DNA of 64,000 bases from assembly GCA_903813345.2 (NCBI GenBank), contig CAIIXF020000012.1, positions 21,774,184 to 21,838,183 on the forward strand, in the 5' to 3' direction. Of this stretch, positions 1,878 through 45,615 are shown piece by piece. The DNA is from Owenia fusiformis (lineage: Eukaryota; Annelida; Polychaeta; Sabellida; Oweniidae). The position numbers and the translations under genes were made by a program. Positions within the stretch are counted from its first letter, which is position 1. Each line of letters starts with the position of its first letter. A model generated the notes under the pieces. It ran no database searches and had not been told where the DNA came from. It was given only the letters and a program-made list of their open reading frames with translations.

Positions 1878-2416
1878 CTTTAACAATCAGTTGTACAGGA
1901 CGTCAATGGTTATAAAGGTAAGAAAACACATGTCATTAAAGAAAATGTTGAGTGGCATGGTACCAAGAAAATAGTCTTCCTTTATGTAGGTTCTTTACTC
2001 GAGGACTACCGTTCCGTAGAAAACCCTACTTTCGAGGCCCAAATTTGCTCATGATGACACAATTTATATTTTATATAGGCCTATAGGGTCAGTAGGGAAT
2101 GCACGGTTAAGGAAACCAAAAAAAACTAAAAAACTACGAATGTAGGAAGCAATGAACAGTGTCGAAATATACAAATGTATACAAAATATACACACTAGGG
2201 ACATTATTACGAGAATATATCCATAAATGCATAGATGCTCTAAATTGTCCTTCTTTATTCCCTAATATATTAACCTCTGTACTGATATGTACTATCTATT
2301 GTTTAATTTATAATAGGCTAAATCATGATAATTTATTACATAATAAATAATTGGTTGCGCTGGTTACACGGACAATAGAGTATAACTTATGAACTTCTAT
2401 TAACTATTTAAGTTCA

Positions 2417-3157
2417 GGTCCTATCAATACATTTTGTTTAGTGCATAGCAATGTGAGCTCTAAAGGAAGCCATTGTTTAATGTCATTTAATACGGCACTT
2501 ACAATAGTACATTCATACAGAAGATGGCAAATCGTTTCAGGATTTGCTTTACAAAAAGTGCAAATGTTTGACTCTACGAGTCCACACATTTTTAGGTATG
2601 TATTAGTTGCTAAAAATCTGTGAAGGACTTTATAAGTGAAGGATGATAACTTAGGTTCATAGTTACTCAGTTTGTTAAGTTTATTTATCTTCTTCCAATC
2701 ATTTTGATTGAGTGACAAATTCAGATCTTTATTCCATCCTTCTATATATTTTGAATTCTTTTCTAAATTCTGAACAAATTCCCAGTATATTATTTTACTA
2801 ATCTTTGACTGAGTAAGGAACTTTTGTACGTGTGCTTTATTTCTTTCATAATCAGTGGTATTCTGATTATTCTCCATGACGTCTCTTTAGCCAAGATTTT
2901 GGAATAGTGTTTTTTAGACTCAAATAGTCTAAAAAATTAATATTACTGTGGAATTTGTCATTGAATTCTAAAAGCGTTAGAAGTCTTTTTGAATTATGAA
3001 ATACCTCCTGTAGTACAATTACTTCATTGTTAACCTTTGTATTTTGCAGTATATATTGAACATTTTGATTTTTGGTATGTTTCCCCCATGTATTACACAT
3101 AGCTTGTTCAGCTCTCAGTTTAGTATTATGTTCAGCTTCTTTTTCATGAGAAGACAA
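2417..3157 (-). pseudogene. LINE ORF2 C-terminal fragment (inverted segment, one frameshift)
   Basis: Two overlapping minus-strand frames (3157-2867 and 2877-2404) together read as the region after the reverse-transcriptase core of a non-LTR element. The zinc-knuckle segment CTFCKANPETICHLLYEC has the C-x2-C...H-x4-C spacing usual for the end of LINE ORF2. A frameshift near 2870 breaks the frame, and the final codons run into the target-site duplication, so this is a dead fragment. It lacks the polymerase YxDD region and any endonuclease. Confidence 0.75.
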
Positions 3158-4961: not shown

Positions 4962-5144
4962 CTGGGCAAATTCGTACATTACAACCACTTCTGACAGTTT
5001 CAAAAGAATTCCCTTCACACATGTACGCAGCTGCTATTGAGGAATATGAGTGCGTTCGTGTACGGGTTTTGGACATGTTGCCAGGACCACACGTAGTACT
5101 GCAGCCTCCAGCGGACCAAGCACCCCAGTTATTCCATGAACAAT
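4962..5144 (-). CDS. TSP1 domain exon 11
   Basis: 61 codons, phase 1 to 1: acceptor aatgtag|AT TGT, donor CCA G|gtacta. It reads CSWNNWGAWSAGGCSTTCGPG, then a basic strand (KTRTRTH), CEGNSFETVRSGC and CNVRICP. All conserved TSP1 landmarks are present. Long open frames seen on the plus strand here are antisense shadows. Confidence 0.85.
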
Positions 5145-6663: not shown

Positions 6664-9480
6664 TCTTGTAGACCATTGCCTTATGTTGATTTTATATACT
6701 CACAGGGGCAGTCAAGCACATTATAAGACATCCGTGCCATTGCCTTAAGTTGATTTTATATACTCACAGGGACAGTCACGCACGTTACAAGATATGCGTG
6801 CCACTGCCTTATGTTGATTTTATATACTCACAGGGACAGTCACGCACGTTACAAGATATGCATGCCACTGCCTTATGTTGATTTTATATACTCACAGGGA
6901 CAGTCACGCACGTTACAAGATATGCGTGCCACTGCCTTATGTTGGTTTTATATACTCACAGGGACAGTCACGCACGTTACAAGACATGCGTGCCATTGCC
7001 TTATGTTGATTTATATACTCACAGGGACAGTCACGCACGTTACAAGACATGCGTGCCATTGCCTCATGTTGATTTTATATACTCACAGGGACAGTCACGC
7101 ACGTTGCGAGACATGTGTGCCATTGCCTTAAGTTGATTTTAAACACTCACAGGGACAGTCATGCACGTTACAAGACATGCATGCCATTGCTAAATGTTGA
7201 TTTTATATACTCACAGGGACAGTCAGGCACGTTACAAGACATGCGTGCCATTGCCTTATGTTGATTTTATATACTCTCAGGGACAGTCACGCACGTTACA
7301 AGATATGCGTACCATTGCCTTATGTTGATTTTGTATACTCACAGGGACAGTCACACACGGTACAAGACATGCGTGCCATTGCCTATTTGATTTTATATAC
7401 TCACAGGGACAGTTACGCACGTTATAAGACATGCGTACCATTGGCTTATGTTGATTTTGTATACTCACAGGGACAGTCACGCACGTTATAAGACATGCGT
7501 GCCATTACCTTATGTTGATTTATATACTCTCAGGGACAGTCACGCACGTTACAAGACATGCGTGCCATTGCCTTATGTTGATTTTATATACTCACAGGGA
7601 CAGCCACGCACGTTACAAGACATGCGTGCCATTGCCTTATGTTGATTTATATACTCACAGGGACAGTCACGCACGTTACAAGACATGCGTGCCATTGCCT
7701 TATGTTGATTTTATATACTCACGGGGACAGTCACGCACGTTCCAAGACATGCGTGCCATTGCCGTATGTTGATTTTATATACTCACAGGGACAGTCGTGC
7801 ACGTTACAAGACATGCGTGCCATTGCCTTATGTTGATTTATATACTCACAGGGACAGTCACGCACGTTACAAGACATGCGTGCCATTGCCTTAAGTTAAT
7901 TTTAAACACTCACAGGGACAGTCACGCACGTTACAAGACATGCGTGCCATTGCTAAATGTTGATTTTATATACTCACAGGGACAGTCAGGCATGTTACAA
8001 GATATGCGTGCCATTGCCTTATGTTGATTTTATATACTCACAGGGACAGTCACGTACGTTACAAGACATGCGTGCCATTGCCTTAAGTTGATTTTAAACA
8101 CTCACAGGGACAGTCACCCACGTTACAAGACATGCGTGCCATTGCTAAATGTTGTTTTTATAAACTCTCAGGGACAGTCACGCACGTTACAAGACATGCG
8201 CGCCATTGGCATGTGTTGGTTTAATATACTCACGGGGACAGTCAGGCATGTTACAAGATATGCGTGCCATTGCCTTATGTTGATTTTATATACTCACAGG
8301 GACAGTCACGTACGTTACAAGACATGCGTGCCATTGCCTTAAGTTGATTTTAAACACTCACAGGGACAGTCACCCACGTTACAAGACATGCGTGCCATTG
8401 CTAAATGTTGTTTTTATAAACTCTCAGGGACAGTCACGCACGTTACAAGACATGCGCGCCATTGGCATGTGTTGGTTTAATATACTCACGGGGACCGTGA
8501 CGTACGTTACAAGACATGCGTATCATTGCCTTATGTTGATTTTATACACGCACAGGGACAGTCACCCACGTTAAAGACATGCGTGCCATTGCCTTATGTT
8601 GATTTTATATACTCACAGGGGCAGTCAAGCACGATACAAGACATGCGCGCCATTGGTATATGTTGGTTTAATATACTCACAGGGACAGTGACGTACATTA
8701 CAAGACATGCGTATCATTGCCTTATGTTGATTTTATATACTCACAGGGACAGTCACGCACGTTATAAGACATGCGTGCCATTGCCTTATGTTGATTTTAT
8801 ATACTCACAGGGGCAGTCAAGCACATTATAAGACATGCGTGCCATTGCCTTAAGTTGATTTTATATACCCACATGGACAGTCACGCACGTTACAGGACAT
8901 GCGTGCCATTACCTTATGTTGATTTTATATACTCACAGGGACAGTCACACACGGTACAAGACATGCGTGCCATTGCCTATTTGATTTTATATACTCACAG
9001 GGACAGTCACGCACGTTATAAGACATGCGTACCATTGCCTTATGTTGATTTTGTATACTCACAGGGACAGTCACTCACGTTACAAGACATGCGTGCCATT
9101 GCCTTATGTTGATTTTATATACTCACAGGGACAGTCACGCACGTTATAAGACATGCGTGCCATTGCCTTATGTTGATTTTATATACTCACAGGGGCAGTC
9201 AAGCACGTTATAAGACATGCGTGCCATTGCCTTATGTTAATTTTGTATACTCACTGGGACAGTCACTCACGTTACAAGACATGCGTGCCATTGCCTTATG
9301 TTGATTTTATGTACTCTCAGGGACGGTCGTGCACGTTACATGCGTGCCATTGTACTCTCGGGGACAGTCGTGCACGTTACAAGACATGCGTGCCATTGCC
9401 TTATGTTGAATTTATGTACTCTCAGGGACAGTCAGGCACGTTACAACACATGCATGCCATTGGTATATGTTGATTTTATA
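6664..9480 (-). repeat. Minisatellite of ~44 x 64 bp derived from a TSP1 exon end plus its splice donor
   Basis: A 64-bp unit is repeated about 44 times. On the minus strand each unit reads TGTAACGTGCGTGACTGT then CCCTGTGAGTATATAAAATC. The adjoining real exon (9488-9667) ends TGTAACGTACGTGAATGT CCCT|gtgagtatataaaatc, so every unit contains the last TSP1 codons (CNVRDCP) and the splice donor. About 7 units have the donor mutated (gtgagt to gagagt); the rest keep it. Higher-order structure exists: the four-unit block starting near 8022 recurs 256 bp later at 8278. The array fills the intron immediately downstream of exon 10. Confidence 0.9.
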
Positions 9481-9487
9481 TACTCAC

Positions 9488-9667
9488 AGGGACATTCACG
9501 TACGTTACAAGAAAGTGAACTCGTTTCAATGGAATTGCCTGAGCACAGGTGCTCACCACCAGGGGAAGATGTTTGAGGTCGTCTTCGAGATTTAATCAAA
9601 AAACCAGGTCCACAAGTTTTATCGCATTTGCTGTACACCCATTGACTCCACATACCCCAAGTACAAT
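9488..9667 (-). CDS. TSP1 domain exon 10
   Basis: 60 codons, phase 1 to 1: acceptor ctttcag|AT TGT, donor CCC T|gtgagtat. It reads CTWGMWSQWVYSKCDKTCGPG, RRRPQTSS, CSGNSIETSSLSC and CNVRECP, a complete six-cysteine TSP1 domain. Its 3' end is the source of the adjoining 64-bp minisatellite, so this donor must be chosen over dozens of downstream copies. Confidence 0.85.
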
Positions 9668-9835: not shown

Positions 9836-11446
9836 AATGAAATTGGGAAGCTAGTTCAAAATCTCTTTAACAAGAACAATATGCAAAGGGGAAGTTAGTT
9901 CAGGATCTCTTTAATGACAAAAATAAACAATGGGGGAGTGAGTTCTGCATTTCTTTAATGACAACAATATCCGATGGGGAGGTTAGTTTAGCATCTCTTT
10001 AATGACAAAATATGCAATGGGAAAGCTAGTTCTGCGTCTCCTCAATAAAACCATACAATGGGAAAGTTTGTTCAGCATCTCTTTATAACAATCTGCAAGG
10101 AGGAAGCTAGTTCAGCATCTTTTTAATACCAATCTGCAATGGGGAAGTTAGTTCATGTGCAAAGGGGTAGTTTGTTGAGCATCTTTTTAATAACAATCTG
10201 CAATGGGGAAGTTAGTTCAGTATCTTTCCAATAAGAACCATGTGCAAAGGAGAAGTTAGTTCAGCATCTCTTTAATAAGAATCATATGCGAAGAGGAAGT
10301 TAGTTCAGCATCTATTTGATATCAATTTGCAATGGGGAAGCGTGTTCAGTATCTTTTCAATAAGGACCATGCGTAAATGAGAAGTTAGTTCAGCATCTCT
10401 TTAATAAGAATCATATGCAAAGGGGGAGTTAATTCAGCATCTCTTTAATAACAGTTTGCAATTGGGAAGTTAGTTGAGCATCTTTTGAATAAGATATGTA
10501 TGCAATGGGGAAGTTAGTTCAACATCTCTTTAATAGGAAGCATATGCAAAGGGGAAACTGGTTCAGCATATTTTTCATAAGAACAATGTGCAAAGGGGAA
10601 GTTAGTTCAGCCTCCTTTAATAATAACCATTTGCAATGGAGGAGTTAGTTCAGCATCTTTTGAATAAGATCTATATGCAATGGGGAAGTTAGTGCAGCAT
10701 CTCTTTAGTAAAAACCACATGCAAAGGGAAAGCATCTATTTGAAAACAATTTTCAATTGGGAAGTTGCATGTAGTTAAGCATCTCTTTATTAACAATCTG
10801 CAATGAAGAAGATGCTCAGGCATCTATTTAATAACAATTTGCAATGGGGAAGTTAGTTCAGCATCTTTTAAATAAGAGACCAAATGCAAGGGAAAGTTAG
10901 TTCGGCATTTTCTAAATAAGAACCATGTGCAAAGGGGAAGTTAGTTCAGCCTCTCTTTAATAACAATTTGCAATGGGGAAATTAGTTGAGCATCTCTTTA
11001 ATAACAATTTGCAGTCGGGAAGTTAGTTAAGCCTCTATTTAATAACACTTTGCAATGGGGAAGTTAGTTCAGCATCTTTTAAATAAGATCTATATGCAAA
11101 GGGGAAGTTAGTTCAGCATTTTTAAATAAAAACCATATGCAAAGGGGAGGTTGTTCAGCATCTCTTAAATAAGAACAATATGCAAAGGGGAAGTTAGTTC
11201 AGCATCTTTTAAATAAGATTTAAATGCAAAGGGGAAGTTAGTTCAGCATCTTTTAAATAAGATCTCTATGCAAAGGGGAAGTTAGTTCAGCATCTTTTAA
11301 ATAAGAACCATATGCAAAGGGGAAGTTAGTTCAGCATCTTTTAAATAAGAACCATATGCAAAGGGGAAGTTAGTTCAGCATCTTTTAAATAAGAACCATA
11401 TGCAATGGAGATGTTAGTTCAGCATCTGTTTAATAAGAACAATATG
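9836..11446. repeat. Minisatellite of ~36 x 43-46 bp filling the intron between TSP1 exons 9 and 10
   Basis: Units such as aggggaagttagttcagcat followed by cttttaaataagaaccatatgc repeat from about 9836 to 11446, with the most uniform copies at the right end. On the minus strand, units carrying tttaat present ATTAAA, a common variant polyadenylation hexamer. The array stops about 7 bp from the stop codon of exon 9, and its first ATTAAA (11429-11434) lies about 20 nt after that stop. Confidence 0.9.
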
Positions 11447-11452
11447 TAATCA

Positions 11453-11637
11453 CTAGCGCGGACACTCCTTGTTGTAGCATGTTTCCTGGTCTGACTGATT
11501 TGAACTTCCCTCACACGTATACCCAACTGGAGCTTGTAGTTTGGTTCTTGAGCGAGTTTTCTGTCGTAGCCCAGAACCACATGTCACCGAGCAACGGCCT
11601 TGTTGTGCCCAAGGGCCCCACGTGCTCCACCTACAGC
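11453..11637 (-). CDS. TSP1 domain exon 9, probable alternative last exon
   Basis: Phase-1 acceptor (tttacag|GC TGT). It reads CRWSTWGPWAQQGRCSVTCGSG, RQKTRSRTK, CEGSSNQSDQETC and CYNKECPR, then TAG. The domain is complete and 60 codons would end exactly where the other exons splice, but there the bases are C|GCTAGT, not GT. The only nearby GT (CGCTA|gtgatt) is in phase 2 and would create a stop. With an ATTAAA about 20 nt downstream it reads best as a terminal exon. A rare GC-AG intron is the alternative. Confidence 0.75.
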
Positions 11638-11656
11638 CTGTAAATCGCGTCTCTTA

Positions 11657-12850: not shown

Positions 12851-13042
12851 CAGCTGCACATTGTTGAGTATTACACCGTTCGGAAGTAGGTAGACTCTCT
12901 ATTGTTTCCCCGATACATGTTGCTGATATCCCAGTACCAACAAACAGTTTGATTCTTCTCCTGGACTTATATATGTTTCCCGTACCACAACTCTTAGAGC
13001 AAGCCCCGAGTTGCCATCGGCTCCACACTCCCCATCTGCAGC
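12851..13042 (-). CDS. TSP1 domain exon 7
   Basis: 64 codons, phase 1 to 1: acceptor atcgtag|GC TGC, donor GCT G|gtaagt. It reads CRWGVWSRWQLGACSKSCGTG, RRRIKLFVG, CIGETIESLPTSERC and CNTQQCAA. Very similar to exon 8 apart from a few extra residues (VGTGISA). Confidence 0.85.
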
Positions 13043-20823: not shown

Positions 20824-21046
20824 CTGAAATAGTCAAAAAGTCAAGATTTTTAAGTGTTGTCATAAGAATAACATATCATCTACTGTATAATATTATTAAC
20901 ATCATATTGTATCAAAACATATCAAATCGTACTTGTACTGTCTGATGTCATGCCCTATCATGTAAACATAACTTGATATCAAGCACTGTCATATCATACA
21001 TTATTCATCATCCTTTTTACCCATTCAAACCTTATTACGCAACTAC

Positions 21047-22043
21047 CTGATCATTTTCATCTTCTTCTTTTAAATGTGTAGCAATATAGTTCACTCCCTC
21101 TATTGCCTTGTTAATAGAAGGGTCTGGGTGCCTTAAACGCAACCCTGGCGCCGCGTTCATCTCTGCCTCTAAAACATCCATCTCGTCGGGTGTGTTGGCG
21201 AACGTGAAGTTGTCCCGCCTCATCTCATTGAAGGTGTCTCTAACCTCTATCCCATTACACGTACGTACCATCACTTTTGGTGCTTTGTTTTTTTCTAGGT
21301 TTGGTCTACGCATGATCAGTAGACGAGGAAGAATATTCAGGAAGACTTTTCTCACCCATGGAGACATAACATGCGTCGATGGTGCCCGGAAATGCACATT
21401 AAGTACGACTACAGTTACTATGATGCTGAGGGTGACTAGAATCATAGTGAAGAGTAAGTACTTGCCGATCAGTGGCACCACTAGAGATGTCGGTGGAATG
21501 ATCTCGGCAAGCAGCAGGAAGAATACAGTCAAGGAAAGAAGGATGGAGATACACAAAGTAATTTTCTCACCGCTGTTAGAAGGCAGATAGAATACTAATA
21601 CAGTGAGGAAGGAAATAGCAACACAAGGGATGATAAGATTCACAGTATAAAATAAGGTTTTGCGGCGCATCTCGACGGTAAATGTAATATCCGGGTATGG
21701 CTCAGAGCAACAGGGGTAGTATTTCTCCTTCCTTCTTGCGGGCACTGCCAGTAAGTCCCATTCAACACTACGGTAGTAATCCCTCAAGTCAACTCCTCTT
21801 TCCATCTGGTCTTCTTCCTCACCATCTTCATTCTTTCCTTGGCCAATATGCACCAGGTCAACCTGGTATCCATCATAAGTCCAGGAGCCAAACTTCATTT
21901 TGCATATTTGCTCGTCAAATGGGAAAAATTCTACGTTAATTTCACACGAGCTTTTATAGATGGCGGGTGGTTCCCATTTTACACGCCCTTGGGGGTACAG
22001 GGTAGCTTTAGTCATTAACGTGACTTCGTAATTACCATCTGCA
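21047..22043 (-). CDS. nAChR alpha main exon: Cys-loop, loop C, M1-M3 and cytoplasmic loop
   Basis: 997 nt, phase 2 to 0: acceptor tctttcag|T GCA, donor GAT CAG|gtagtt. Landmarks in order: [13 protein letters not shown]; the Cys-loop [15 protein letters not shown] (13 residues between cysteines); [14 protein letters not shown]; loop [12 protein letters not shown] with the vicinal cysteines of alpha subunits; M1 from [11 protein letters not shown]2 [20 protein letters not shown] with the glutamate that favours cations and no anion-type insertion; M3 [19 protein letters not shown]; then a fairly short cytoplasmic loop. Between the Cys-loop and loop C there is an acidic insertion ([12 protein letters not shown]) in the loop F region. 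Confidence 0.95.
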
Positions 22044-22293
22044 CTGAAAGAACATAATGGTGGGGCGCTATAAAACACAAAAATCATATGGAGAACCAGG
22101 CAAAAATACATTAACTCAAACCCAGAAGTGCTAGATTCACCACGTGTTAAGGTATAATGAAGTTCAATGATTTAGATGAATAAATTCTCATTAAAACGGT
22201 CGAACAAAAGAGTTGCGAGGACCTGTTGGTCTGTCAAAGAATAGGGTTTCAAAACGAGATCAAGGTACATCGAAATAAGGGGTGAACCAGATG

Positions 22294-44976: not shown

Positions 44977-45480
44977 CATTGTGCCAGATCGGTGGACTGT
45001 CAATGTGATAGTCGAAGACAGGTTGGACAGACACGTAACAGACCCTGCCATTGTGCCAGATCGGTGGACTGTCAATGTGATAGTCGAAGACAGGTTGGAC
45101 AGACACGTAACAGACCCTGCCATTGTGCCAGATCGGTGGACTGTCAATGTGATAGTCGAAGACAGGTTGGACAGACACGTAACAGACCCTGCCATTGTGC
45201 CAGATCGGTGGACTGTCAATGTGATAGTCGAAGACAGGTTGGACAGACACGTAACAGACCCTGCCATTGTGCCAGATCGGTGGACTGTCAATGTGATAGT
45301 CGAAGACAGGTTGGACAGACACGTAACAGACCCTGCCATTGTGCCAGATCGGTGGACTGTCAATGTGATAGTCGAAGACAGGTTGGACAGACACGTAACA
45401 GACCCTGCCATTGTGCCAGATCGGTGGACTGTCAATTTGATAGTCGAAGACAGGTTGGACAGACACCAAACAGACCCTGC
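44977..45480. repeat. 7 x 72-bp near-perfect tandem repeat
   Basis: Unit starts cattgtgccagatcggtgga and ends cagaccctgc; copies begin at 44977, 45049, 45121, 45193, 45265, 45337 and 45409. Copies are almost identical except the last (caatttgatag, caccaaacag). Because 72 is a multiple of 3 and the unit lacks stops, four frames stay open for 170-200 codons. None has a start context, composition or flanks that argue for a gene. Confidence 0.92.
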
Positions 45481-45615
45481 CATACTCGTTTGATTCTTCA
45501 TACTTTGTTAATCCAAGATGGAACAGACCTGAATATTGTCCAGGAATATGTCGAATTAACATATTTAAAATGTCGACGAGTCAGTGGAGTGTCTTACATT
45601 GTTTAGATGTCAATA

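What the first reader, a model, noticed from the sequence alone, without database searches (positions are those of the whole stretch)
6664..9488. A minisatellite that amplifies a TSP1 exon's last codons and splice donor ~44 times
Each 64-bp unit carries, on the gene's sense strand, the end of the TSP1 domain (CNVRDCP) plus CCCT|gtgagtat, matching the functional end of exon 10 directly beside it. Most units keep the donor. The intron therefore starts with one true donor followed by dozens of near-perfect decoys. They could compete for U1 snRNP, act as a splicing brake, or yield variant exon ends. The array evidently grew from an exon-intron boundary, an unusual origin for a minisatellite.
Basis: partly seen in the sequence, partly recalled or inferred. 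Interest (0 to 1): 0.82.

Follow-up and report, generated by a model that had tools for sequence, protein, structure and literature searches.

The report
Exon edge copied 44 times
In what is probably a marine worm, the last stretch of one gene segment and its cutting signal has been copied 44 times into the spacer that follows, and other genes of the same genome carry similar copies, so the cell must pick the right cutting signal among dozens of near-identical ones.

Summary
On the minus strand, 44 tandem copies of about 64 bp (about 6673-9448) lie directly behind a TSP1 exon (9488-9667). Each unit carries 25 nt of exon end plus 39 nt of intron start; the exon-attached unit matches the array consensus at 58 of 64 positions. 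37 of 44 intron copies keep GT, and 27 of 44 equal the true donor over 12 nt. Paralogous exons end at the homologous place, so the array grew from the exon edge.

It is not unique in kind: such boundary repeats are known from amphioxus as "mirages" (PMC3087553, PMC3902484, passages). In this genome, probably the annelid Owenia fusiformis, 19 of 24 other donor-bearing arrays sampled begin at an exon-like end, among them UGDH, INTS9, CTDNEP1, PPP2R5 and Caprin. My searches found no report of annelid mirages.

Best reading: near-neutral amplification of the boundary; the exon-attached donor is used and the copies leave with the intron. Any decoy use here would pass one in-frame stop. A splicing brake is not supported: donor columns are not significantly better kept than the rest. 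No RNA data were available.

The parts
9488..9667 (-). TSP1 exon (180 nt, begins and ends in phase 1) whose 3' end founded the array
   Evidence: (TSP_1 E 2.5e-5)
9482..9487 (-). true 5' splice site GTGAGT
   Evidence: inferred from the open frame and from paralogous exon ends, not from RNA
9449..9512 (-). exon-attached unit: 25 nt of exon plus 39 nt of intron; 58 of 64 positions as in the consensus
6673..9448 (-). 44 intronic copies of the exon-intron boundary, the last one diverging at its end
9277..9445 (-). the three copies nearest the exon (u01-u03), all with GA in place of GT; the first copy with GT is u04, 233 nt from the true donor
9441..9443 (-). in-frame TAA met by read-through before any copy's donor
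8000..8447 (-). block duplication inside the array: u17-u19 identical to u21-u23 (lag of 4 units)
12851..12875 (-). end of a paralogous TSP1-like exon, at the homologous place, followed by GTAAGT
4962..4983 (-). end of a paralogous TSP1 exon, CNVRICP, followed by GTACTA; no TRF array over 60 bp in the 3.2 kb around it
   Evidence: L009

Best explanation
A tandem duplication once spanned the boundary between a TSP1 exon and its intron (25 nt of exon, 39 nt of intron). Because the exon-attached copy kept its donor, the extra copies fell inside the intron and could grow to 44, by unequal exchange or slippage and by block duplication. The spliceosome uses the donor attached to the complete exon; the copies are removed with the intron and drift. 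It works like the 'mirages' of amphioxus genes, and is one of a class of such arrays in this annelid-like genome. Shown: anatomy, direction of origin, block duplication, the stop before all decoys, and recurrence at other exon ends. Inferred: which donor is used, neutrality, and the mutational mechanism.
For: Unit anatomy. Paralogous exons end in homologous codons; two of them (L005, L009) have no TRF array over 60 bp nearby. The exon-attached unit is more diverged from the copy consensus than the average copy (0.891 against 0.929; sixth most diverged of 45), as expected if it is not homogenised with the array. Block duplication. Donor columns not significantly better kept than others. The same anatomy at genes with homologs: Rieske_4, UGDH, INTS9, CTDNEP1, and Caprin-1_C, Kringle, Pkinase, B56 and a Pfam Il2rg-named family (PPP2R5 in the PDB). 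In UGDH the acceptor side shows it too: 7 copies of the exon start, only the 3'-most joined to the full exon. Amphioxus data are reported to suggest regular splicing at mirages (PMC3087553, passages).
Against: No transcript was available, so use of the true donor is unproven. The three nearest copies have all lost GT, which could be selection against close decoys (0.0026 if the 7 losses were placed at random); but some losses share descent, and in 9 of 11 arrays tabulated the first true copy keeps GT. The tests of neutrality are weak because copies are not independent. A neighbouring TSP1 exon (11457-11653) has a doubtful donor, so the gene may not be fully intact. 5 of 24 sampled donor arrays were not clearly at an exon end.
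Confidence: 0.78

Rival explanations
1. The array is a functional splicing brake or U1 snRNP sink: 37 donors, most of them as strong as the true one, compete with it and slow or tune removal of this intron, or hold U1 along the intron and protect it from early cleavage.
For: 27 of 44 copies match the true donor over 12 nt and have the same computed U1 duplex energy, -8.1 kcal/mol (U1 letters recalled). Any use of a decoy passes the same stop, which could couple decoy use to mRNA decay.
Against: Donor columns are not significantly better kept than the rest (P 0.16) and 7 of 44 have lost GT. The same class of array occurs in unrelated genes, as expected of a mutational habit rather than a gene-specific control. 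Amphioxus mirages are reported not to disturb splicing (passages).
Confidence: 0.1
2. Copies with live donors are slightly harmful and are purged near the exon, where they could compete; the array persists because distant decoys are ignored.
For: The three copies nearest the exon all carry GA; 0.0026 under random placement.
Against: Partly shared descent of the GA copies. In 9 of the 11 arrays tabulated the first true copy keeps GT (exceptions: the window and UGDH).
Confidence: 0.2
3. A dispersed satellite inserted at, or converted, the exon end, so the exon was shaped by the repeat and not the repeat by the exon.
For: The region is rich in tandem repeats (50 TRF rows in the window).
Confidence: 0.03
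4. The array is a misassembly, or its length is wrong.
For: Single assembly, no reads available.
Against: Units differ from each other (mean pairwise identity 0.87), with a block duplication in order; similar arrays recur at other loci.
Confidence: 0.04

Closest known systems
[quoted passage not shown]
   Same: Tandem units holding part of an exon plus its splice site plus part of the intron; many but not all copies keep the splice signals; 5' and 3' boundaries can both be affected; unit sizes from 10 to 160 bp (PMC3087553 and PMC3902484, passages).
   Different: 44 copies here, against 6 and 3 units in the two BflGb6 haplotypes; probably another phylum (annelid-like, not cephalochordate); no RNA or population data here.
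Human internal tandem repeats at exon-intron boundaries in segmental duplications (PMC2812944, passages)
   Same: Minisatellite-scale repeats at exon-intron boundaries of genes.
   Different: On average 4 copies of 30 bp; there linked to new introns and alternative transcripts in recent paralogs.
[quoted passage not shown]
   Same: Annelid; large intronic tandem arrays; exon copies missing from transcripts.
   Different: Monomers average about 180 bp; no exon-intron boundary inside the unit is described in the passages I saw.

Membership tests
Mirage (boundary-spanning minisatellite) | Tandem repeat unit spans an exon-intron boundary | tested here: met
   25 nt exon + 39 nt intron in the 64-bp unit
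Mirage (boundary-spanning minisatellite) | The boundary is that of a real coding exon | tested here: met
   TSP_1 E 2.5e-5; paralogous exon ends in register. Expression not tested
Mirage (boundary-spanning minisatellite) | Many, not all, copies keep the splice signal | tested here: met
   GT in 37 of 44 intron copies
Mirage (boundary-spanning minisatellite) | Copies do not disturb normal mRNA splicing | not testable with these tools
   No RNA data
Mirage (boundary-spanning minisatellite) | Length instability between alleles | not testable with these tools
   One assembly; the block duplication u17-u19 = u21-u23 is indirect support
Mirage (boundary-spanning minisatellite) | Occurs in a cephalochordate, as in the papers seen (a habit of the taxa studied, not part of the definition) | tested here: inconclusive
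   Taxon inferred as annelid from 12 large chromosomes and three hits to the annelid erythrocruorin linker family above cut-off; no GFP hit, but no control genome rang there
Functional splicing decoy or brake | Donor motif kept by selection better than the rest of the unit | tested here: inconclusive
   P 0.16, copies not independent

The most novel reading that the evidence does not exclude
In this annelid lineage exon boundaries are a preferred birthplace of minisatellites: a large set of genes, housekeeping genes among them, carry from a few to dozens of near-equal copies of their own donor or acceptor site, and the spliceosome still picks the exon-attached outermost one. Splice-site choice there would be set by attachment to the exon and by position rather than by the sequence of the site, and the arrays would be a standing source of new exon ends and introns.
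Probability: 0.45. Interest if true: 0.75.

Novelty: new member of a known kind. Interest (0 to 1): 0.6.

Why it matters
Each such gene is a natural experiment on how a true splice site is told from identical neighbours. A genome that has made many of them makes two questions testable with RNA reads: whether tens of equal decoys cost anything, and whether boundary duplications feed the gain of new introns, as proposed for amphioxus globins (PMC3087553, passages).

Tried and rejected
Selection on the decoys: per-column divergence in the 44 copies gave no clear difference between donor, exon and remaining columns (P 0.16 for the donor, 0.68 for the exon part). Trend of divergence along the array: Spearman 0.24, P 0.11, not used. 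Rule 'nearest decoy is dead': true in the window and in UGDH only, 2 of 11 (the +18 'decoy' of L013 in that table is an artefact of the scan, its first true copy at +38 keeps GT), so dropped. Rule 'a stop precedes the first decoy': 8 of 11; in the second sample L045 and L050 stay open to the end of the fetched array and L046, L049 and L054 pass at least one copy, so it is not general.

Identification of the organism: no GFP family hit (no control genome rang), no COX1; a text search for the assembly size failed. The taxon rests on 12 large chromosomes, the erythrocruorin linker hits and likeness to the published Owenia fusiformis genome (12 chromosome-scale scaffolds, 505.8 Mb; PMC9977687, passages); the sizes differ by about 7 Mb. 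Inference, not proof.

Enrichment of donor motifs in arrays: 490 matches against 227 for the reversed motif, but matches cluster in few arrays and the printed lists are capped at the first 100 places. By distinct arrays in the stretch that both lists cover (C1 and C2 to 33.7 Mb) I count 14 against 6, suggestive only. The control arrays were chosen without the donor motif, so they could hardly pass the donor test; the Fisher values (which also count L051 as a success) are not used. Only one ORF each of 8 of the 14 control arrays was scanned by Pfam, so '2 beside exons' is a lower bound.

Dropped from the count of exon-like ends: in the first sample L014 (doubtful), L015, L017 and L022; in the second L051, whose exon ends 87 nt before the first clustered donor and resembles the unit only weakly. 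Acceptor arrays: 20 of 21 listed were fetched; an open frame of 48 aa or more follows the last copy in 6 of 20 (L069, L071, L072, L073, L077, L084). Pfam was asked for L069, L071, L072, L073, L077 and L081 and gave one weak match (L069, E 0.002). Acceptor arrays other than UGDH thus remain mostly unproven.

Full report
What is there. On the minus strand a TSP1 exon (9488-9667; Pfam TSP_1 E 2.5e-5) ends in CNVRECP plus one base and is followed by GTGAGTAT. From 9512 down to about 6673 the sequence is a 64-bp tandem array. Walked unit by unit it has 45 units: one attached to the exon and 44 in the intron. Each unit holds 25 nt of exon end and 39 nt of intron start; the exon-attached unit agrees with the consensus at 23 of 25 and 35 of 39 positions. 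The chance of 20 of 22 matches at one place is about 5e-10 under a simple base-composition model. GT is kept in 37 of 44 intron copies, and 27 of 44 equal the true donor over 12 nt, with the same computed U1 duplex energy.

Direction of origin. Other TSP1-like exons of the window end at the homologous place, for example TGTAATGTACGAATTTGCCCAG before GTACTA; two of them, L005 and L009, have no TRF array over 60 bp nearby. So the exon end is the older sequence and the array was copied from it.

How it evolved. Mean pairwise identity of the intron copies is 0.87. Units u17-u19 are identical to u21-u23, a block duplication. The exon-attached unit is the sixth most diverged of 45 from the copy consensus, as expected if it is held by coding selection and not homogenised. 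Column by column, the donor hexamer is not significantly better kept than the rest (P 0.16) and the T of GT has changed in 7 of 44. These are weak tests because copies are related.

What decoy use would do. Read-through from the exon gives CEYIKSTYTNGMHVL and then TAA at +44, before the first copy at +64. Thus the 44 copies, if used, would all give one and the same truncated end. The three nearest copies lack GT, so the nearest live decoy lies 233 nt away. Neither feature is general: a stop precedes the first copy in 8 of 11 arrays and the first copy keeps GT in 9 of 11; in L045 and L050 the unit is a multiple of 3 and the frame stays open as far as I fetched, so there decoy use could lengthen the protein.

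A class, not a singleton. A genome pattern search for three donor motifs in tandem gave 490 matches against 227 for the reversed motif (lists capped at 100 places). I fetched the 14 distinct arrays listed. In 10 of 14 an exon-like open frame ends at the first unit; four of these have homologs: a Rieske_4 protein, UGDH, INTS9 and CTDNEP1. As a replication I took the 10 further arrays listed for a narrower motif. In 9 of 10 an exon-like end is the first unit; L051 is doubtful. Five of the nine have a family match at E below 1e-3: Caprin-1_C, an Il2rg-named family and B56 above Pfam's cut-off, Kringle and Pkinase below it; the B56 exon matches PPP2R5 in the PDB. 'Exon-like' is my reading of open frames and acceptors, not an automatic call. 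Of 14 arrays found with the reversed motif, one is also a boundary array, again of a TSP1 exon (L058), and at least two lie beside exons without including them (DHO_dh, Aldedh).

Both sides of exons. In UGDH the exon is preceded by copies of its own start: 7 in all, of which only the 3'-most is joined to the full exon, the other six running into a stop. It is followed by 12 copies of its donor. So there, as in the donor arrays judged exon-like, the exon-side outermost unit is the coding one; for the donor arrays I looked at that end first and did not test systematically for coding at the far end. Acceptor arrays at large are uncertain: an open frame of 48 aa or more follows the last copy in 6 of 20 fetched, with one weak family match.

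Organism. Twelve large chromosomes, annelid erythrocruorin linker hits and genome size point to Owenia fusiformis (PMC9977687, passages). This is inference.

Known relatives. Amphioxus genes carry the same kind of structure, called mirages; the papers say that many but not all copies hold splice signals, that RT-PCR suggests regular splicing, and that length varies between haplotypes (PMC3087553, PMC3902484; passages). The first description (Adh locus, 2002) was not held. Owenia with minisatellite gave no paper; annelid with minisatellite, intron, tandem repeat and splice gave two, of which I saw passages of one, on earthworm metallothionein genes and only the listing of the other. Further searches named no annelid case in their listings beyond that paper; I did not open most of the papers listed.

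Verdict. The proposed brake is not supported, and variant ends are unlikely at this locus. The single array is a large new member of a known kind; its recurrence at other genes of an annelid-like genome is the more interesting result.

Noticed in passing
11457-11480 (minus strand): TSP1 exon at 11457-11653 ends TGTCCGC followed by GCTAGT: at the place where the sister exons have GT there is GC, and an in-frame TAG follows; the exon may use a weak GC donor, be skipped, or be dead.
   Followed up: partly
9837-11446: A second minisatellite (about 44 bp, some 37 copies by TRF) fills the intron just upstream, starting about 10 nt after the previous exon; its unit holds no evident exon sequence.
   Followed up: partly
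L025 (G000:C2:33702300-33706100): UGDH exon with 7 copies of its exon start upstream and 12 copies of its donor downstream; a further array (91 bp, 3 copies) at the end of the locus looks like the next exon's acceptor and start.
   Followed up: partly
L015 (G000:C1:13514500-13521000): 67-bp unit with an acceptor-like CCTCCCTACAG, six bases TCCAAG and a donor GTGAGT, about 43 copies: looks like an array of possible micro-exons.
   Followed up: no
L058 (G000:C1:60945929-60947707): Another TSP1 exon whose end and donor (ATGA then GTAAGT) begin an array of about 26 34-bp copies; found by the control motif.
   Followed up: partly
L045 and L050: Boundary arrays with units of 42 and 54 bp whose frame stays open through the whole fetched array, so decoy use could add in-frame repeats to the protein.
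   Followed up: partly
44977-45483: Seven 72-bp copies, 99% alike, open in several frames on both strands.
   Followed up: no
2407-2886 (minus strand): Fragment with a zf-RVT domain (zinc-binding in reverse transcriptase, E 7.2e-9) inside the TSP1 gene region, a likely retroelement remnant.
   Followed up: no
21038-22171 (minus strand): Neurotransmitter-gated ion channel, ligand-binding and membrane regions in one open frame.
   Followed up: no
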